DNA of 64,000 nucleotides from a virus. The stretch is from the IMG/VR virus record IMGVR_UViG_3300046002_008717, positions 47,729-111,728 of that record; one strand, 5' to 3'. Numbering within the stretch: the first letter of the stretch is position 1; the number at the start of each line of letters is the position of its first letter. The notes beneath the pieces were generated by a model. It had not been told where the DNA came from and ran no database searches. It saw nothing but the letters and a program-made list of their open reading frames with translations. The position numbers and the translations under genes were made by a program. Below are positions 9,587 to 19,615 of this stretch, in pieces.

Positions 9587-12500
9587 ATGGCAAATAAGGT
9601 AAAAATAGACTATTCACAATTTAGAGCATCTGGTGTATATACGCTTGAATTCGACGCGTCTCAAAACGTCATACTTACATCCCAAACTATTAGATTAGTA
9701 GTGGGATTCTCTAATAAGGGTCCTTTTAATACTCCAGTTTATATCCCGGACGTAACAACACTAATATCTATTTTTGGAGATGTGGATAGATCTCTTGAAA
9801 ATAATGGATCATTCTTCCAAAGATCGATACTAACCTGTTTAAACGCGGGACCGGTTTTTGCTTTGAATCTTTTAAAAGTAAACGATGATATAACATCAGC
9901 AGATCCTGATACGGTAACGTATAAATCATACTCGCTTGATACTGAAGAAATTAATGGTGTACCAACAAGCAAATTATATTCATCGTATTATAATAAAGAA
10001 AGATTTTGGTTCCCAGATACTAATTACTTTTTAGCAACACTAGGAACAGTAGATCAAGGTAAGTTATTAAATTTAACAAATCTTGGTAAATCTCCTATGA
10101 GTATAATAATTAGAAAATCTTCTGATTCATCTAAACCAATTAAAGGGTATGATATTTTTGCAGTAGATTGGTACGGATCTGATAAAGTTCCTACTTTTAT
10201 GAATCCTTATGATTATATGTCTGATTACTTTATAGATGTAATAGGAGTTTATGGAGACTGGACAAACTATCAGGCATTAGCATTAGATCCTAAATGGAGC
10301 AACTATTTTACCAATAACGGATTTAAAAAATCCATGATGGATTCATTTCTTGCTAGCCCTGACGTTTCTATAGTAACATCAGTTACCGGATGTATAATCC
10401 CTGATTTTGTAGACCTTAATGGAATAAATCAATATATACAAACCTTAATAAATAACAATACGCCTTCTAGTGGATTATTTTGTGCAATTGACGAAAGAGC
10501 ATTTGATGATATATGTGAGAGCACATCGAGAATAGATTTAGTTGGTCACCATTTAATAGACGGAAGAGATGTTAATAACGAATTTGCTATAACAAGAGTA
10601 AATTTCTTAAGTTACGATCAGGCTTTATCTGCAGATTATTTATATGCACAAAATTCTATTGGTATTACAGGGGCTACTGGATTTACCGGACCTGTTGGAG
10701 GTACTGCTTATACTGCAGGAATAAATACAGGAACACTATTTACATTAACAGGAGCAACAAGTGGTGTTATATCCGGATCATTTTTACCATACAGCAGTTC
10801 TGCATATGATATGGGATTACATTATCTAGAAACATCTGGTGTAACTGGATCAGCAGGAGGATTTGAAACAGCAGCACAAAAAACACAATTGAAAACATTC
10901 CTATCCGTATCTTCATCTAGCGATCAGAAATTTATATTGGGTGTTGTTACTGGAGTATCAGGAACAACTGCTACGGGTTTTGCTGAAGCAGATTTAATTA
11001 AATTGAAAGTTACAGGAACAAAAGAAATTGGTGGAGAACTTAGAATATATTTTACACATCCACTAGATACAAGTTTTTACAGAGGACAAGGAATAGTAGT
11101 AAAGCCTACTGATAATTTAGCTTCACTAAGCTCTAGTTTATATGCAGCTTCATACCAATTTGGTAATTCTGATTACATAGACATAGCAAGTATTGCTACT
11201 CCTAGTGGTATAACTGGACCAGGTGCACCATTTGGTGTTGCTAATACGTTAATTGGATACAATGCTTCGAAATTATATCAAGATAATAAATACGCAGAAG
11301 TTGTAAATAGTGATGTAATATGGTTGGATACCGTCGGTACACAACAGCAACATCTAGGTTTCGAATCTACTGTAGATAGAGATTTATTTAGCTTAGTATA
11401 TGCTAGATCATTCAGTAACGAATCGCTTGATAATACAACAATAACAGATATAGCTGCTTTCGGAACAGATTATACTACATATGGTACACAAGCGGGAGCG
11501 GGTACAACCAATATAGTTTCACAGGTTGGATCTATAAATTCATTAGTACCTTGTACATCAGTTGATGAATATACAATATTAATAACTAATGACTCTAATG
11601 GAAATGCTCCTCTATCGGTTGGAGATCTATTAGTTTCTAAGGAAGTTGATATATGTACATCCACTACAGGTGCAACACAAAAAAGATTAACAAAAGTAAA
11701 ATCGGTAGCTAAAACTACAACATCAGGAACATATAAGGTTATTGCAGCAAGACCTATAGAAATAACTAGTAATAGTGAAGTTAGAAAATTTCAATCTATA
11801 GCTCAATTTACTAAATCCTTTAATTTTACATATCTTAACGGATTTAAAACTAAAGCAGCGCATAGACCGAATGGAACAGATGCAAGAGTAACTGAACTTC
11901 TTGAAGTTTTATATACTACCAATATAGCTAAAACCTTGGCATCTAAGGATATTATATCATTCAGATACATCGTTGATACATTCAGTGGTCAAATTTTACC
12001 TAGTTCTAAAAATGAATTAAGTAGACTTGCTAAACTGAGACAACAATCATTGGCTATAATAAATGCACCATCTATAGCACAATTTAGAAATAGCACAGAT
12101 CCTAGATTTACAGATGAGCCTACGAGCACAAACCCGTATCCAAAATTAAATACCTCTTATATCGTATCGGGTGGTAATTTGGCATTGAATCCAACATATA
12201 CATTCAGTTTACCTACTGATGATGAAGGTGCTAGATTTAGTGCATTTTATTCTCCTTATATAGTAGTAAGAGACGGAAATAGAAACGTAAACATTCCGCC
12301 TGCAGCACACGTTTCTAATAATTTTATTAGAAAATTTGCTAACGGTGAACCGTATGCTATTATAGCTGGTCAAAAAAGAGGAATATTAAGTGGTGGCAAT
12401 GTAGTTGGAGTTGAATACGAATATGATGATGATGATAGAGGAAACTTGGAAGTATTTGGTATAAATCCTATAGTAAAAAGAAAAGGTGTTGGTGTTATCA

Positions 12501-12905: not shown

Positions 12906-13460
12906 ATGGCAGGATTATCACACTATAACAATGGAATATCGGCAATCAATAAACAGGAGCCTGTTTATTTGAATCAATTCGAAGTAAGTATAATACCTCC
13001 TGGAGTTATAGCGGGAGGTAAAATATTACTGGAGCATGTCACAAAAGTTAGTGGACTTTCTCTAGATAAAAATCCAGGAATAATACAACAGAAATTTAAA
13101 TTCGCTAAAAGGAATTATGCTGGTGGTAAACCTGAGAATACCTTTATGGATTTGAGTTTAAGTTTTAATGTCAATTTGGACGAATCTAATTCAATGTATG
13201 TTTTCAAAACATTAAGACAATGGTCGGATTTAATATACAATCCGCTAACTGGAGCAATGGGATTAAAAAATGATTACGTCGGAACTATAGTCATATCGAT
13301 ATTTAATAAGCAGGGTGATGTATATAGAAGAATTACATGTAAAGATGCATTTCCAATTAAACCTATAACTCCGATGAATCTAAATTATACATCTACAGAT
13401 CTATATAAAATAGATGATATGGTTTGGGCAGTTGATGTTTGGGAGGATCTATTCATATAA
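12906..13460 (+). CDS. gp19: tail tube protein, copy 1 (gp19-like)
   Basis: A 184-residue protein with the T4 gp19 fold pattern and position directly after the sheath. 'YLNQFEVSIIPP' near the N-terminus and 'RQWSDLIYNPLTGAMGLK' in the middle are typical tube-family segments, the latter lying in the region that packs between hexameric rings. It polymerises into the inner tube through which DNA passes. A second copy follows after 15 bases. The two share the ring-packing segment and the 'WEDLFI' terminus but differ elsewhere. Confidence 0.9.
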   Translation: MAGLSHYNNGISAINKQEPVYLNQFEVSIIPPGVIAGGKILLEHVTKVSGLSLDKNPGIIQQKFKFAKRNYAGGKPENTFMDLSLSFNVNLDESNSMYVFKTLRQWSDLIYNPLTGAMGLKNDYVGTIVISIFNKQGDVYRRITCKDAFPIKPITPMNLNYTSTDLYKIDDMVWAVDVWEDLFI

Positions 13461-13475
13461 AATAATAATAAATAA

Positions 13476-14051
13476 ATGTCAGGATTATCACATTTTAACA
13501 ATTCAAAAGCGGGAATACTTAATAGAGAACCAGTTTTTCTTAACCAATTCTCTCTTATTATAAATCCTCCAGCAGGAATACTGGATGCAGGAAAACAATT
13601 TAATGGAGAAAGTATACTTGCACAGCAAGTAAAATCCATAACAGGATTGGCTGTAGATATCACACCAGCACAAACAGTGGAGCAACATTATAAATTTGCT
13701 ACCAGAAGATATGCAGGCGGTGAGCCATCTACTAGTGATATGGCGTTATCTATGGAATTTGAAGTCAATTTGAATGATAAGAATTCTATGGAAGTATATA
13801 AAATATTAAGACAGTGGTCAGATTTAATCTACAACCCTCTAACTGGAGCTATGGGATTGAAAACAGATTACGTTGGATCTATGCTTATTACTGTATTTAA
13901 CAAAAGAGGTGATATATTTAGAAAAATTAGAATACCATCATGTTTCTTAAGTGAAGCTATAAACCCAATGGATCTTGATTATGAAACTCCAGCTATTTAT
14001 ACAATAACTGCTTCATGGATATGCGATACGTGGGAAGATTTATTCATATAA
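13476..14051 (+). CDS. gp19: tail tube protein, copy 2 (gp19 paralogue)
   Basis: At 191 residues it is a clear paralogue of the preceding tube protein. It has the same start ('MSGLSHFNN' against 'MAGLSHYNN'), the same 'RQWSDLIYNPLTGAMGLK' segment and the same 'WEDLFI' end. Differences cluster in the loop after residue 25, where this copy is slightly longer ('GILDAGKQFNGES'), and in the C-terminal half. Possible roles are a mixed tube, a specialised ring at one tail end, or redundancy. Sequence alone does not show which copy forms the bulk of the tube. Confidence 0.88.
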   Translation: MSGLSHFNNSKAGILNREPVFLNQFSLIINPPAGILDAGKQFNGESILAQQVKSITGLAVDITPAQTVEQHYKFATRRYAGGEPSTSDMALSMEFEVNLNDKNSMEVYKILRQWSDLIYNPLTGAMGLKTDYVGSMLITVFNKRGDIFRKIRIPSCFLSEAINPMDLDYETPAIYTITASWICDTWEDLFI

Positions 14052-14231: not shown

Positions 14232-14258
14232 AAAGACCTAATTTGGTCTTTTTTTTAT
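14232..14258 (+). terminator. intrinsic terminator after tail tube genes
   Basis: Stem AAAGACC/GGTCTTT (14232-14238 with 14245-14251), six-base loop TAATTT, then a T run to 14256. It would end transcription of the sheath and tube operon. Confidence 0.8.
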
Positions 14259-14302: not shown

Positions 14303-15331
14303 ATGCAATTAGACATATCACCAGAAGAAATATTGAAAAATAAAGAAATGCAAGGTGGTCTTATTTATGATGAAGAAATTATAAGTGAAACACCAAAGTC
14401 TGATCTAATAGAAACTACACAAGATATAAAGGAAAGTATAGTTTTGGATCCAGAAATAATTTCTGTACCAAAAGTTGAATCTTCTCTTCCTCCTTCATTT
14501 GAATTGGGATGGAAAAATATACCGTTACATATATTACCATCTCGCGGTATTTTTTATCCAGAAGGAACTAGAATGGCAATATATCCAGCAGAAGTTAATG
14601 AGATACGACATTATTCTACAATAGATGAAGAAGATAGACTAGGTGTCGAAGAAAAACTTGGCTATATATTAGAGAGGTGTCTTAAAATAGATTTTCCTAA
14701 TGCTGGTATAGTTTCATATAAACATCTAAAACAAGAGGATAGATTTTTTGTAATAATGGCAATACGTGATTTATCGTTCGTTGTAGGTGAAAATGTAATA
14801 TTACTTACACCCAATAAAAAATGTAAAGATACAGACGAGTGTCCATTTTCTAATGGTATAGAACTTAGAACCGGTGCTCTAGATTTTTATGAGCTTGATA
14901 AGAAAGTATTAAAATATTATAATCCAAAAACTAGAAGTTTTGTATTTAATGTTAAAAAAATTAATAAAAGTATAGAAATGTTTATACCTAGTGTAGGAAT
15001 AAATCAAGCGATTACTAATTTTATGGTATATGCAAATAATAATTCTATAGAAGTGGATGAGGGTTTTATAAAAATTGCTCCTTTCCTATTTGACGATTGG
15101 CAGAAAGTAACCAATACTAGTATACTTTTAGCATTCAGAGAATCTGATAATTGGACTAAAGAAGAATATAGTTTATATTTCGAATTATCAGAAATTATAA
15201 AAATCGGTACAAAACTAGGCATTAAACAAAGATGCCCAGTTTGTGATGAGGAGGTCACTGCCGATATTGCCTTTCCCTTTGGGCTCAGATCTCTTTTCGT
15301 TATTTCAGATATCTTTGGACAATTACTTTGA
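14303..15331 (+). CDS. gp26-like baseplate hub/assembly protein, ends at a CTT TGA frameshift candidate
   Basis: The 342-residue protein has a variable acidic N-terminus (1-70), then a conserved region beginning 'IPLHILPSRGIFYPEGTRM' that resembles the T4 gp26 baseplate family: a beta region, then a helical region around 'GVEEKLGYILERCLKIDFP'. A 'CPVC' pair near the C-terminus may be a residual zinc site. It sits between the tail tube genes and the tape-measure-like gene. The last sense codon and stop read CTT TGA, and the +1 frame stays open for 57 more codons (to 15503). It could therefore make a short and a long product, as tail-assembly chaperones do. The gp26 assignment is moderately confident. 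Confidence 0.7.
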   Translation: MQLDISPEEILKNKEMQGGLIYDEEIISETPKSDLIETTQDIKESIVLDPEIISVPKVESSLPPSFELGWKNIPLHILPSRGIFYPEGTRMAIYPAEVNEIRHYSTIDEEDRLGVEEKLGYILERCLKIDFPNAGIVSYKHLKQEDRFFVIMAIRDLSFVVGENVILLTPNKKCKDTDECPFSNGIELRTGALDFYELDKKVLKYYNPKTRSFVFNVKKINKSIEMFIPSVGINQAITNFMVYANNNSIEVDEGFIKIAPFLFDDWQKVTNTSILLAFRESDNWTKEEYSLYFELSEIIKIGTKLGIKQRCPVCDEEVTADIAFPFGLRSLFVISDIFGQLL

Positions 15332-15503
15332 TATTAAATTCAGATTACGGGCGGAACATAAAGTTGATATGATATGGATAGAAAATATACCATATTACGA
15401 ATATCAAATATTTCTTGACGGCTTAAATAAAAAAATAGAAAAAGATAATATGGAAGCCCAATCCAGTGATGGTGTAAAAGAGCTGTTTAACTTTAAAAAA
15501 TAA
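15330..15503 (+). CDS. +1-frame extension of the gp26-like gene (possible frameshift product or overlapping gene)
   Basis: After the TGA at 15329-15331, the +1 frame continues from GAT (15330) for 57 residues: 'DIKFRLRAEHKVDMIWIENI' and onward, ending '..KELFNFKK'. Its composition looks like protein, with aromatic and charged residues alternating. It runs to just before the tape-measure-like gene. This frame also extends upstream to an ATG at 15243, overlapping the gp26-like gene by 89 bases, and has an internal ATG at 15369. Separate initiation is therefore possible. Fusion by +1 slippage on CTT TGA is the more interesting reading. Confidence 0.6.
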   Translation, partial: DIKFRLRAEHKVDMIWIENIPYYEYQIFLDGLNKKIEKDNMEAQSSDGVKELFNFKK

Positions 15504-15518: not shown

Positions 15519-17036
15519 ATGGCAGCAAGTGATCCCAAATTAATAGCACAATTACTAGATCTTAGTAGAAGTGTTAGCAGTCTTACATTGGAAGTTAAAA
15601 AAAATACCAATGTAAATTCCTCATTGACAGAAATAAATGAGGACATAAAAGAATCCAATGATATAGGAAAGGTTGCGGACGCTTTAAAAAATATAAATAT
15701 AAAAGACCTAAAATCTGAATTTGGTTCTTTATCCAAAAGTTTAAAGGATCTTGATTTTAATAATATAGCCAAAGAATTAAAAAATATAAATACTAAATCT
15801 GATGTTCTTAAAGATCTTGATATAAAAAAAATATCAGAGGGATTAAATGGATTAAAAAAATTAGATTTTAAAAACATAGCTAAAGATATAGGTAAAGACT
15901 TCGGTAAGGACCTTATTAAAAATGTTGATCTATCTAAAGGAATAGGCGGAATTAAGGATGTAGTTTCTGGATCTATCGGAGGTATAGGTAAAAAATTATT
16001 AGGTGCATTTGAGAACGGTGGGGATGTAAAGAAAAGTGGCAATTATTTGGTCGGAGAAAAAGGTCCGGAAATAGTTGATCTAAAAAAAGGTGCTAATGTT
16101 ATATCAAATAGTAATTTATCAGGGCTTAGCAAAAAAATTAAAGATACCCCAACAGCATCAGAAATAGAGGAAAAAAAGAAAAACCTAATTAAAGAGGATC
16201 CTGAATATTTAAGAGATCCTAAATATTTAGCTGATGAAATTGAATATTACATAGATAGCTACGATAGGAAGAAAAACCAGAAGGCATTTAGTAAAAATGA
16301 CTTTGCGAATTTATTAGCTCCTATTGCTAAGAAAAAAGAGGATGAAAAAATAGCAGGCCCTACGAATAAAAATGTTTTAAAGCCTAAACTAGAAGAGACA
16401 AAAATAGAAAACAATATAGTTACTAAAAAACCAAATCTTCTTTCTAAAATACAGGGAACATTAAATAGCGATGATATATTCAATAATATAACTCCTAATA
16501 AAATAATTGGGGGAGCAGCTAAACTTATAAACAAGAATAATAACCCATTAGTTAAAAACGGTCTTAATATTGCAACTAATCTATTATCTAATAAATCATC
16601 ATTAAAATTTAATGATATTGCTAAGGGTGTAATGAATAATCCAGAAATCAATGCTATTACTAGCAAGATATCTAAGATCGGTGATTTTGGAATAGGTGGG
16701 GGTATTAAAAAAAATCTTACTAAATTATCAATTCCATTAGCATCTAAAAATAATCAGGAAGCCATTCAACCCGATTCTGGTACATCCTCTAATAACAATG
16801 AACAAAAAATACAGGTACCAAATCAAATAAAAAACGAACCTAATTATCAGGAAGTTGCTAAAACTGAAAACGCAGTTAGTACGAAGACAGCAGAGAATGT
16901 ACAATCTGAGGGCTTATCTAAAATTGATGCTGATAATATGATAAGATTATTATCTGAGATGGTTAATTTATTAAAAGGTCCTCTTAGTGTATCTCCGATG
17001 GACTCCCCATTTAGACCAAATTCAAGAAAAGTATAA
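15519..17036 (+). CDS. tail tape-measure-like protein (gp29 position)
   Basis: The 505-residue, largely helical protein has an N-terminal half made of repeated 'LKNINIKDL' and 'LKDLDFNNIAK' type units (about 50-145). Near residues 160-200 is a Gly-rich stretch and then 'GNYLVGEKGPEIVDLKKGA', which matches the 'VGE.GPE....GA.V' signature common in phage tape-measure proteins. T4's tape measure gp29 has 590 residues. Tape measures set tail length and leave through the tube at injection. Its place after a frameshift-prone overlapping pair copies the classic tail-chaperone and tape-measure order. A hub-associated virion protein is the alternative. Confidence 0.6.
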   Translation: MAASDPKLIAQLLDLSRSVSSLTLEVKKNTNVNSSLTEINEDIKESNDIGKVADALKNINIKDLKSEFGSLSKSLKDLDFNNIAKELKNINTKSDVLKDLDIKKISEGLNGLKKLDFKNIAKDIGKDFGKDLIKNVDLSKGIGGIKDVVSGSIGGIGKKLLGAFENGGDVKKSGNYLVGEKGPEIVDLKKGANVISNSNLSGLSKKIKDTPTASEIEEKKKNLIKEDPEYLRDPKYLADEIEYYIDSYDRKKNQKAFSKNDFANLLAPIAKKKEDEKIAGPTNKNVLKPKLEETKIENNIVTKKPNLLSKIQGTLNSDDIFNNITPNKIIGGAAKLINKNNNPLVKNGLNIATNLLSNKSSLKFNDIAKGVMNNPEINAITSKISKIGDFGIGGGIKKNLTKLSIPLASKNNQEAIQPDSGTSSNNNEQKIQVPNQIKNEPNYQEVAKTENAVSTKTAENVQSEGLSKIDADNMIRLLSEMVNLLKGPLSVSPMDSPFRPNSRKV

Positions 17037-17100: not shown

Positions 17101-17697
17101 ATGGATAAAAAAATCGGGAAAGATAGTATAACTAGTAATGGCCTGCATTTTCATAAAGGATTAAATTTTATGGATGATATATTCATGTCTCATAAGATGT
17201 GGGTAGTTAAAAAATCAAAATACGAGGGGGAATATATCGAAGCTTATTCTGATGATGTAGATTCTCCATTTTTATATCCAGATTATGGATCAAAAGATGA
17301 ATTATATTTAGAGATGGCATCAGTGTGGTCAAAAAATTCTCATTGTTCCAGAATGAAAGTTGGATGTCTTATAATCAATAACAAATCTATAATTTCCGAT
17401 GGTTATAATGGATCACCAGAGGGATTTCCTAACGTGTGCGAGAGCGATGATAATATAACCCTCCCGTACGTATTACACGCGGAAGCAAATGCAATTACCA
17501 AATTAGCAAAAGGTACGCAAAGCTCGATTGGATCAACTTTATATGTAACATTATCGCCATGTTATGAATGTTCCAAATTAATTATACAGTCGGGGATTAA
17601 AAAAATTGTATTTTCTGAGGTATATAGAAACCCTGAATCAATTTTTTTCTTAATAGAAGCAGGAATAGAGGTTTTAAAAATAGATAGAAATAAATAA
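17101..17697 (+). CDS. cd: deoxycytidylate (dCMP) deaminase
   Basis: At 198 residues it is close to T4 dCMP deaminase (193). The zinc site is intact: His126 and Glu128 in 'HAEANAI', then Cys154 and Cys157 in 'SPCYEC'. The preceding 'MKVGCLIINNKSIISDGYNG' is typical of the family. It converts dCMP to dUMP, feeding thymidylate synthesis and the dNTP balance during replication. The first 70 residues ('GLHFHKGLNFMDDIFMSHK') are an N-terminal extension I do not recognise. A host-type promoter box precedes it, and the sigma-factor gene follows two bases after its stop. Confidence 0.93.
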   Translation: MDKKIGKDSITSNGLHFHKGLNFMDDIFMSHKMWVVKKSKYEGEYIEAYSDDVDSPFLYPDYGSKDELYLEMASVWSKNSHCSRMKVGCLIINNKSIISDGYNGSPEGFPNVCESDDNITLPYVLHAEANAITKLAKGTQSSIGSTLYVTLSPCYECSKLIIQSGIKKIVFSEVYRNPESIFFLIEAGIEVLKIDRNK

Positions 17698-17698
17698 T

Positions 17699-18310
17699 AT
17701 GAAAAAAGAAACAAGCATTCAGAAGTTGGCTGAGAATTTTATAAATAACAAATCAGAGAAAACATTTAAATATCTATTTGAAAGATTGAGACCCGGCTTA
17801 TTAAATCATTGTTATCTAATACTGAAAGAAAATGATCTAGCCGAAGATGCTTTTTTAAGCGCCATGGCTAAAGTATATTTTAAAATAGATCAATACCAAC
17901 AGGACAAGGGTAATTTTTCAACATGGTGTTATAATATAGGCAAAAATGAGTCATTGCTTATCATAAAGGAGAGAAAAAAATACTATTCGCATAATGATAC
18001 GGAAATGGAATTTATTTCTGCAAAAAATGAAATAGGCGATATAGGTGGTTATTATGTGATGGAGGATGATAGTACAAATTCATTCTTTAATGATGAAAAT
18101 AAATTCGAAATGATATATGAAGCAGTATTGGAGGAAATAAGGGATCTACCCGATCTATATAGAGATATCATGATAGACAGGGAATTGCATAAAATGAAAT
18201 ATAAGGACATAGCAGAAAAGTATGATATGAAAAAAAGATCAGTAGCAACCAGAATTAGAAGAGCTAGAAATAAAATAACTAAGAAAATAGAAGAAAACCC
18301 AAAAATGTAG
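17699..18310 (+). CDS. ECF-type RNA polymerase sigma factor
   Basis: The 203-residue protein has the two-domain layout of an extracytoplasmic-function sigma factor. Region 2 lies around residues 30-100: 'NDLAEDAFLSAMAKVY' for core binding, then 'GNFSTWCYNIGKNESL' for -10 recognition. Region 4 lies around 140-195: 'DLPDLYRDIMIDRELHKMKY', then a helix-turn-helix ending 'KRSVATRIRRARNKI' for -35 recognition. A gp55-type late sigma is encoded separately at 25410, so this is a second phage sigma factor. It may serve a middle class of genes or redirect host transcription. Its stop lies within a terminator hairpin. Confidence 0.8.
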   Translation: MKKETSIQKLAENFINNKSEKTFKYLFERLRPGLLNHCYLILKENDLAEDAFLSAMAKVYFKIDQYQQDKGNFSTWCYNIGKNESLLIIKERKKYYSHNDTEMEFISAKNEIGDIGGYYVMEDDSTNSFFNDENKFEMIYEAVLEEIRDLPDLYRDIMIDRELHKMKYKDIAEKYDMKKRSVATRIRRARNKITKKIEENPKM

Positions 18311-18356: not shown

Positions 18357-18800
18357 ATGTTTAGAATATTTAAAGTAATAAAAGAAATAATATTATATAG
18401 GGAATATATAAAAACTATAAAATACGAGGCTATGAATTCTCCTCTATGGAGTAGGAGAAATTTAAGAATCGATTATCTTAATCGTATATACACTGTTGTT
18501 AATTTGCCAGCTGCTATATTGATGTCTACCGATTTACCAAAGGATGCTAGACCTTCATTTGTTATAAACGAAATAAAACCAACTAACGAATATTTAAAAT
18601 CCATAAATTTGGAGGAAATCCTTACTATGTGGATAGAACCTATAAAAAATACAAATGAGGAATCTTATCTTGTTGTATATCAATTTTTGTTTAGACAAAT
18701 AAGTTGGTTATGGATTCTTAGATTTATCACACAATTGGTATTAATATTTTTAATAATTTATAATTTTAGTACTATATCTACATTTTTTAATAGTCTGTGA
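18357..18800 (+). CDS. small membrane protein, function unknown
   Basis: I do not recognise this 147-residue protein. One hydrophobic segment near the C-terminus (about 118-138, 'LRFITQLVLIFLIIYNF') is long enough to span the membrane, with a Trp-rich 'ISWLWILRF' entry. The preceding 115 residues are soluble-looking and begin with a basic amphipathic helix. This is the layout of a tail-anchored inner-membrane protein. Its stop overlaps the GTG start of the next gene, so the two are probably translationally coupled. Confidence 0.7.
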   Translation: MFRIFKVIKEIILYREYIKTIKYEAMNSPLWSRRNLRIDYLNRIYTVVNLPAAILMSTDLPKDARPSFVINEIKPTNEYLKSINLEEILTMWIEPIKNTNEESYLVVYQFLFRQISWLWILRFITQLVLIFLIIYNFSTISTFFNSL

Positions 18801-19615
18801 ATGAAATATTAGAAACAAAAAGAATTGAAATAAATAAAAAATTTGAATTCTTTAATGATCCCAAATTTATTTTTGAAGAAGATAAACATGTCTATACATA
18901 TGATGGTGTAAAATTTGATTCAGTTACAACATTTATTAAGATATTCAAAAAACCATTCGATTTAGATTTTTGGTCTAAGAAAAAAGCATATGAAAGAAAT
19001 GTTGACGTTTCTGTTGTACTTGATGAATGGGAAGAAAAAGGTAACGTAGCAAATATATTAGGTACAGCAGTACATGCTTTTATAGAAGATTTTCTAAGTG
19101 GTAGAAACCCTGATATTCCTATTGAGGATGGAAAATCACAGTATGCTTTTAGAGTTAATAATTTTTTAAAATTCTACGAAAGAAAATTAAAGCAATTAGT
19201 ACCTCTTAAATCTGAGCTTAAAGTATTTTCCAGAAAATGGAGATTGGCAGGGACAATAGATCAGCCATTTCTATTTTGGGATAACGAAAGACAAAAAATC
19301 CTATTTTTAATAGGGGATTGGAAAACTAATGGTGTATTTAAGAGCGATCTTCATAAGAAGGGAAAATATACAAAGTTGCTTAGACCTTTCTCTAATTTAT
19401 GGGAGAATCATCTAAATGAATATTCTATACAAATAAGTTTATATAGACTTATATTGGAAGAAGAATTGGGTATAGCAACCGATGGTGGTTTTTTATGCCA
19501 CATTGGACCTGATACTGAGGTAAAGATGTATCCAGTATTGGATTTAAGAGAACCACTAAAAGCATATCTGGATCAAAATAGATGTGATAATTTCGATATT
19601 TATGATTTAAATTAA
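18797..19615 (+). CDS. PD-(D/E)XK nuclease, RecB/Cas4-like
   Basis: At 272 residues, the motifs of the RecB/Cas4-like nuclease superfamily occur in order: 'GTAVHAFIED' (His and acid before the core), 'LAGTIDQPF' (motif with the metal-binding Asp) and 'IGDWKTNG' (D-x-K). Such enzymes cut or resect DNA, often with a helicase. It starts at GTG 18797, overlapping the preceding TGA; no nearby in-frame ATG keeps the conserved N-terminus. Possible roles are recombination-dependent replication or host DNA breakdown. I cannot choose between them. Confidence 0.8.
   Translation: MNEILETKRIEINKKFEFFNDPKFIFEEDKHVYTYDGVKFDSVTTFIKIFKKPFDLDFWSKKKAYERNVDVSVVLDEWEEKGNVANILGTAVHAFIEDFLSGRNPDIPIEDGKSQYAFRVNNFLKFYERKLKQLVPLKSELKVFSRKWRLAGTIDQPFLFWDNERQKILFLIGDWKTNGVFKSDLHKKGKYTKLLRPFSNLWENHLNEYSIQISLYRLILEEELGIATDGGFLCHIGPDTEVKMYPVLDLREPLKAYLDQNRCDNFDIYDLN

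What the first reader, a model, noticed from the sequence alone, without database searches (positions are those of the whole stretch)
15243..15503. Candidate +1 programmed frameshift (CTT TGA) in a gp26-like gene just before the tape measure
The gp26-like frame ends CTT TGA (15326-15331). CTT TGA is the sequence at which bacterial RF2 genes shift +1. A +1 slip of the CTT tRNA to TTT lands on GAT at 15330 and opens a protein-like frame of 57 codons ending at 15503, 16 bases before the tape-measure-like gene. Overlapping frames joined by a shift just upstream of the tape measure are the hallmark of tail-assembly chaperones in lambda- and P2-like phages, usually by -1 slippage. Here it would be +1 and fused to a T4-type baseplate protein. 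I see no strong Shine-Dalgarno stimulator upstream.
Basis: partly seen in the sequence, partly recalled or inferred. Interest (0 to 1): 0.8.

Follow-up and report, generated by a model that had tools for sequence, protein, structure and literature searches.

The report
+1 frameshift making phage tail chaperone

Summary
The two frames are real. The 342-aa frame (14303-15331) ends CTT TGA, and an open +1 frame continues to 15503. The upstream frame is a gp26-type protein (profile comparison with T4/cyanophage gp26, E=1e-6). The +1 frame encodes the C-terminal domain of T4 gp51 (E=1e-9). More than 160 distinct relatives (IMG/VR, Lak megaphages, other huge phages, Flavobacterium and Chryseobacterium phages) keep this arrangement. 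The gene is therefore a tail assembly chaperone whose long form needs a shift into the +1 frame.

The shift is not at CTT TGA. Close relatives lack a stop there (L035, L097), another clade has GAA TAA, and the gp51-like frame is already under selection upstream. The evidence points to TTT_CCC at 15272-15277, which re-pairs perfectly as TTC, CCN in +1. TTTCCC is invariant in two clades although CCC is a rare Pro codon (1 of 260 in one). +1 stops lie just upstream of it and none downstream, where 8.9 and 8.1 sequences with a stop were expected. A conserved Shine-Dalgarno-like AGGAGGT lies 16 nt upstream. Cyanophages use -1 at T_TTT_TTC at the equivalent point; T4 uses two genes.

New variant of a known kind; protein-level proof is missing.

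The parts
14303..15331 (+). Frame-0 ORF, 342 aa: short chaperone form (TAC-N, T4 gp26-like)
   Evidence: phrog_36717 1.3e-22; profile-profile match to T4/Kyanoviridae gp26, E=1e-6
15248..15256 (+). GAG GAG GTC: Shine-Dalgarno-like AGGAGGT (15249-15255), 16 nt upstream of the TTT; candidate stimulator
   Evidence: GTC is 5-10% of Val codons but found in 18/21, 18/26 and 8/9 representatives (z -12, -10, -6)
15272..15277 (+). TTT_CCC: proposed +1 shift site (P-site TTT to TTC, A-site rare CCC)
   Evidence: TTTCCC in 52/52 (W) and 53/53 (A4), 44 of 61 (A3); expected 0.075, 0.002 and 0.036 from codon usage
15279..15503 (+). +1-frame extension (TAC-C), 74 codons and stop; the T4 gp51 C-terminal-like domain starts at about 15297 (SLFQISLDNYF)
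   Evidence: phrog_634; hhalign E=1.1e-9 with gp51 C-terminal domains; helical domain at 338-388 of the fused model
14303..15503 (+). Whole unit: fused long form (TAC-NC), 399 aa if the shift is at CCC_T
   Evidence: translation (P0002); model pLDDT 80, pTM 0.79, low-confidence hinge 325-328 at the junction (P325)
15326..15331 (+). CTT TGA: ordinary frame-0 stop, not the shift site
   Evidence: not conserved in relatives that keep the +1 frame
15519..17036 (+). Tape-measure-like gene (505 aa)
   Evidence: weak hits to several tape-measure PHROGs, best 7.8e-5

Best explanation
The locus encodes the tail assembly chaperone pair of a large T4-related phage. Most ribosomes read frame 0 and make a 342-aa gp26-like protein (TAC-N). 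A minority slip forward one base at TTT_CCC (15272-15277): the Phe tRNA on TTT re-pairs on TTC while the rare codon CCC waits in the A site. They continue in +1 and add the gp51-like helical domain, giving a 399-aa TAC-NC. By analogy with lambda gpG/gpGT, the short form coats the tape measure and the added domain recruits tube subunits. Shown by sequence: homology of both parts, conservation of the +1 frame, and the change of selected frame near 15272-15298. Inferred: the exact slip codon, the +1 (not -2) direction, the stimulator, the efficiency and the chaperone role.
For: Homology: frame 0 to the T4/Kyanoviridae gp26 family, hhalign E=1e-6; +1 domain to T4/Kyanoviridae gp51 C-terminus, E=1.1e-9. 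Foldseek matches of the fused model are T4-like baseplate hub and hub assembly proteins. Frame use: downstream of 15298, changes are mostly silent in +1 and replacing in frame 0 (16:5, 27:3, 7:3 in clades W, A3, A4); upstream it is the reverse (11:35, 10:47, 9:17). Slip site: TTT-C occurs at this place in all W and A4 sequences and 56 of 61 A3, and in L008, L009, L012 and Lak; TTTCCC is far above codon-usage expectation. +1 stops occur two codons upstream of TTT in 41 of 166 sequences and never between TTT and the gp51 domain, except L106, whose gp51-like ORF has its own ATG. Synonymous resampling expected 8.9 of 21 (W) and 8.1 of 26 (A3) representatives with a stop in that interval; 0 seen. 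In W, codons ending in A before Arg always pair with CGA, never AGA, avoiding TAA in +1. L009 and L270-L274 have a longer +1 insert before the domain, which needs an early shift. 39 of 171 have no ATG/GTG/TTG in the +1 ORF upstream of the domain. UUU_Ynn is described as especially prone to +1 shifting in bacteria (PMC5009743).
Against: No protein or ribosome data exist. Between TTT_CCC and 15298 the +1 peptide is poorly conserved, so that stretch is supported mainly by stop avoidance and codon choice. Five A3 sequences (L168, L169, L171, L177, L182) have TTC CCA instead, and L007, L010 and L013 also lack TTT-C there, so the site is not universal. The AGGAGGT lies 16 nt upstream, not the about 3 nt of prfB. 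No conserved RNA structure was found. Stop-test probabilities assume independent sequences, which relatives are not.
Confidence: 0.82

Rival explanations
1. The +1 shift happens at the frame-0 stop CTT TGA, as in prfB.
For: CTT TGA is present here and in most of clade W. CTT_U is the prfB slip tetramer (PMC5009743). Lak has TTT TAA at its stop.
Against: L035 and L097 have no stop there; clade A4 has GAA TAA, which cannot re-pair; gp51 homology and +1 selection start upstream of the stop.
Confidence: 0.04
2. The shift happens at the conserved NTT TTC GTT (15293-15301), by +1 at CTT_T or -2 at TTC.
For: The most visible change of selected frame is at this TTC. CTT TTC is present in nearly all W, and in the five A3 sequences that lack TTT-C.
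Against: In clade A3 the codon before TTC is CTC, CTG, TTA, CTA, TTG, ATG and others, which cannot re-pair at +1 or -2. +1 stops are avoided upstream of it. The invariant rare CCC is unexplained.
Confidence: 0.1
3. The gp51-like ORF is an independent overlapping gene with its own start (GTG 15243, ATG 15369, or reinitiation after the AGGAGGT).
For: L106 has its own ATG; annotators call the downstream ORF a separate gene in MaF61, MA9V and cyanophages. AGGAGGT is conserved and clade A4 has an ATG 10-11 nt after it, but in frame 0.
Against: 39 of 171 sequences have no ATG/GTG/TTG before the domain; 41 of 166 have a +1 stop just before TTT. ATG 15369 would cut the domain.
Confidence: 0.06
4. Sequencing or assembly frameshift error, or a pseudogene.
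For: None beyond the broken frame itself.
Against: The same frame relation is found in more than 160 distinct sequences from many metagenomes and cultured phages.
Confidence: 0.01

Closest known systems
T4 gp26 / gp51, identified as tail assembly chaperones (Vladimirov, Gautam and Davidson 2022, Virology 566:9-15; paper not held, cited in PMC12846349; content partly from memory)
   Same: Both parts are homologous; T4 gp51 is a gp26 paralogue carrying the extra C-terminal domain.
   Different: T4 encodes the two forms as separate genes in opposite orientation; here one gene plus a +1 shift.
Kyanoviridae (cyanophage) gp26-gp51
   Same: Same overlap at the equivalent point; the gp51 domain is out of frame and continues the gp26 frame.
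   Different: The gp51 frame is -1 there, at T_TTT_TT[C/T] in 9 of 9; here it is +1 at TTT_CCC.
Lambda gpG/gpGT and relatives (-1), Mu (-2)
   Same: Short and long chaperone made from one gene just upstream of the tape measure.
   Different: Different protein family and shift direction; -1, -2 and +1 are all reported across tailed phages (PMC5009743).
HF1-group haloviruses, proposed TTT-CGC +1 shift in the chaperone gene (PMC7230728)
   Same: Same codon type (TTT_C) proposed for a +1 shift at the same kind of locus.
   Different: Archaeal viruses, untested; the usual A-site codon here is CCC, although clade A3 members L174, L178, L180, L183, L185 have TTT CGT.
Influenza PA-X UCC_UUU_CGU (PMC3498833)
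   Same: P-site UUU_C with a rare A-site codon; some relatives here carry TTT CGT.
   Different: Eukaryotic virus; no UCC requirement seen here.
prfB CTT TGA
   Same: +1 direction; internal Shine-Dalgarno-like element upstream.
   Different: No stop codon at the proposed site; spacing is 16 nt, not about 3.

Membership tests
T4 gp26/gp51 chaperone family | N-terminal part homologous to gp26 | tested here: met
   hhalign E=1e-6, probability 91; 4 of 16 members hit phrog_150 (baseplate hub)
T4 gp26/gp51 chaperone family | C-terminal part homologous to the gp51 extension | tested here: met
   hhalign E=1.1e-9; phrog_634 1e-5
Tail assembly chaperone with programmed shift | Located between tail tube genes and tape measure | tested here: met
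   tail tube homologues at 12906 and 13476, sheath at 9587, tape-measure-like ORF at 15519 (weak, 7.8e-5)
Tail assembly chaperone with programmed shift | Overlapping frames conserved together across relatives | tested here: met
Tail assembly chaperone with programmed shift | Two protein products in a fixed ratio, absent from virions, binding the tape measure | not testable with these tools
   needs protein work
prfB-type +1 site | Shift at CTT before an in-frame stop | tested here: not met
   stop absent or different in relatives that keep the +1 frame
prfB-type +1 site | Shine-Dalgarno about 3 nt upstream of the slip codon | tested here: not met
   AGGAGGT is 16 nt upstream of TTT
UUU_Y (+1-prone) site | P-site UUU followed by a pyrimidine | tested here: met
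   TTT-C in all W and A4 and in 56 of 61 A3 sequences
UUU_Y (+1-prone) site | Slow or rare A-site codon | tested here: met
   CCC is 7%, 4% and 1% of Pro codons in the representatives of W, A3, A4 and 45 of 673 in the window
UUU_Y (+1-prone) site | Measured shifting at this sequence | not testable with these tools
   needs a reporter or mass spectrometry

The most novel reading that the evidence does not exclude
TTT_CCC together with a conserved AGGAGGT 16 nt upstream is a distinct bacterial +1 shift cassette. It works without a stop codon or RNA structure, has a longer Shine-Dalgarno spacing than any +1 site I know of, and is fixed across a large group of T4-related and huge phages, while sister groups use -1 or separate genes at the same position.
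Probability: 0.35. Interest if true: 0.72.

Novelty: new variant of a known kind. Interest (0 to 1): 0.57.

Why it matters
It assigns the T4-type tail chaperone, short and long forms, to a large group of phages including huge phages and probably Lak megaphages, where the downstream ORF is annotated as hypothetical or not at all. One homologous locus is solved in four ways: +1 here, -1 in cyanophages, two genes in T4, and an own ATG in L106. That makes the gain and change of frameshift direction open to direct study. It also offers a natural, widely replicated UUU_C +1 site in bacterial viruses, a class predicted by Firth et al. 2012 (PMC3498833).

Tried and rejected
CTT TGA as the site: rejected by L035, L097 and clade A4. 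CTT TTC (+1 or -2): my second idea, dropped when clade A3 showed CTC, CTG, TTG and ATG before TTC. Own start codon: rejected for most, accepted for L106. RNA structure: none (single-sequence z=+2; no consensus pairs). Solved-structure searches gave nothing useful. A query built from MA9V and PTm1 found one locus (L266, same length as the PTm1 record) and one from PAU only one identical contig. The key paper, Vladimirov 2022, is not held, so whether it already lists these phages or a +1 case could not be checked.

Full report
Observation. Frame 0 runs from ATG 14303 to TGA 15329-15331, and its last codon is CTT. The +1 frame is open from before GTG 15243 to TAA 15503. Both points are as described. 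The +1 ORF matches phrog_634 (T4 gp51, 'baseplate hub assembly catalyst') at 1e-5. The 57 codons after CTT TGA alone give only 0.085, so the homology begins before the proposed site, at about 15297.

Relatives. Frame 0 has distant relatives in Lak megaphages, other huge phages, Flavobacterium MaF61, Chryseobacterium MA9V-1/2, Sphingomonas PAU and Tenacibaculum PTm1/PTm5. In all of them a +1 frame continues past the frame-0 stop (Lak needs TAG=Q). IMG/VR scans gave hundreds more; three clades were analysed after removing identical overlaps: W (window clade, 52), A3 (61) and A4 (53).

What the gene is. Profile comparison links frame 0 to T4 gp26 plus Kyanoviridae gp26 (E=1e-6) and the +1 domain to the T4 gp51 C-terminus plus Kyanoviridae gp51 (E=1.1e-9). 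T4 gp51 itself is a gp26-family protein (phrog_150 2.6e-84) with the extra domain. Kyanoviridae and related records have the gp51 frame at -1, entered at T_TTT_TT[C/T] in 9 of 9 examined. The T4-like chaperones were identified by Vladimirov et al. 2022 (cited in PMC12846349). The phrog_634 domain occurs once in the 111.7-kb record holding the window, here; that record may be a fragment, so a separate gp51 elsewhere is not excluded.

Where the shift is. (1) CTT TGA is not conserved: L035, L097, L069, L085, L086 and clade A4, GAA TAA. (2) Downstream of TTC 15296-15298 changes are mostly silent in +1 and replacing in frame 0 (16:5, 27:3, 7:3 for W, A3, A4); upstream the reverse (11:35, 10:47, 9:17). 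(3) TTT_CCC at 15272-15277 is in 52/52 W and 53/53 A4 sequences and 44 of 61 A3; 12 further A3 sequences keep TTT-C with CGT, CCA, CCT or CAA; five A3 sequences have TTC CCA. Given Phe-Pro, codon usage predicts TTTCCC at 0.075, 0.036 and 0.002 (W, A3, A4); in A4, CCC is 1 of 260 Pro codons elsewhere in the gene. (4) 41 of 166 sequences have a +1 stop two codons before the TTT; none has one between TTT and the gp51 domain except L106, where the downstream ORF has its own ATG. Resampling synonymous codons predicts 8.9 of 21 (W) and 8.1 of 26 (A3) representatives with such a stop before the TTC; 0 were seen (nominal log10 P -5.6 and -4.6, assuming independence). A4 is uninformative for this test. 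(5) In W, a codon ending in A is followed by CGA in 4 of 4, while C- or T-ending ones are followed by AGA or AAA in 48 of 48, which avoids TAA in +1. (6) L009 and L270-L274 keep TTT CCC, have a +1 stop just before it, and carry a longer open +1 stretch before the gp51 domain.

Mechanism. On TTT_C the Phe tRNA re-pairs on TTC, and CCC_N re-pairs on CCN; no -2 slip here re-pairs. UUU_Ynn is described as especially prone to +1 shifting in bacteria without a stop (PMC5009743). A rare A-site codon helps at influenza UUU_CGU (PMC3498833), and TTT-CGC was proposed for haloviral chaperones (PMC7230728). GAG GAG GTC (15248-15256) is conserved through rare codons in all three clades, 16 nt from TTT; whether it stimulates is unknown. 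No RNA structure was found.

Structure. AlphaFold2 on the fused protein (22-row alignment) gives pLDDT 80 and pTM 0.79. The +1 domain is helical (338-388) and the low-confidence segment 325-328 lies at the junction, P325. Foldseek finds T4-like baseplate hub and hub assembly proteins among viral models and nothing in the PDB.

Limits. Everything is inferred from sequence. The TTC-CCA A3 subclade, L007, L010 and L013 need another site; Lak could use either TTT CAA or its stop TTT TAA. Sequences within clades are related, so nominal probabilities overstate the evidence.

Noticed in passing
window 14232-14256: Terminator-like hairpin AAAGACC-taattt-GGTCTTT followed by a T run, in the 250-nt gap between the tail tube gene and the chaperone gene; seen by eye.
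   Followed up: no
window 12906-13460 and 13476-14051: Two adjacent related tail tube genes (both hit phrog_32623, 4.1e-33 and 4.5e-30).
   Followed up: no
window 17699-18310: A sigma-factor-like gene (phrog_1740, 2.7e-18) beside a dCMP deaminase (17101-17697) and an exonuclease (18797-19615), right after the tape-measure-like gene.
   Followed up: no
L106 1501-2900: Relative without the shift: frame-0 tail diverged, +1 stop present, gp51-like ORF begins with its own ATG (MKAVAGISVDKKSILSMFKINLENFF).
   Followed up: partly
L168, L169, L171, L177, L182: A3 subclade with TTC CCA instead of TTT CCC but CTT TTC downstream; may have moved the shift to CTT_T.
   Followed up: partly
L002, L003 3230-3300: Lak phages (TAG=Q) have TTT CAA at the equivalent site and also TTT TAA at the frame-0 stop; either could be the +1 site.
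   Followed up: partly
L016-L022, L024, L025: Cyanophage and related gp26 genes have T_TTT_TT[C/T] at the end of frame 0; gp51 is annotated as a separate gene in most.
   Followed up: partly
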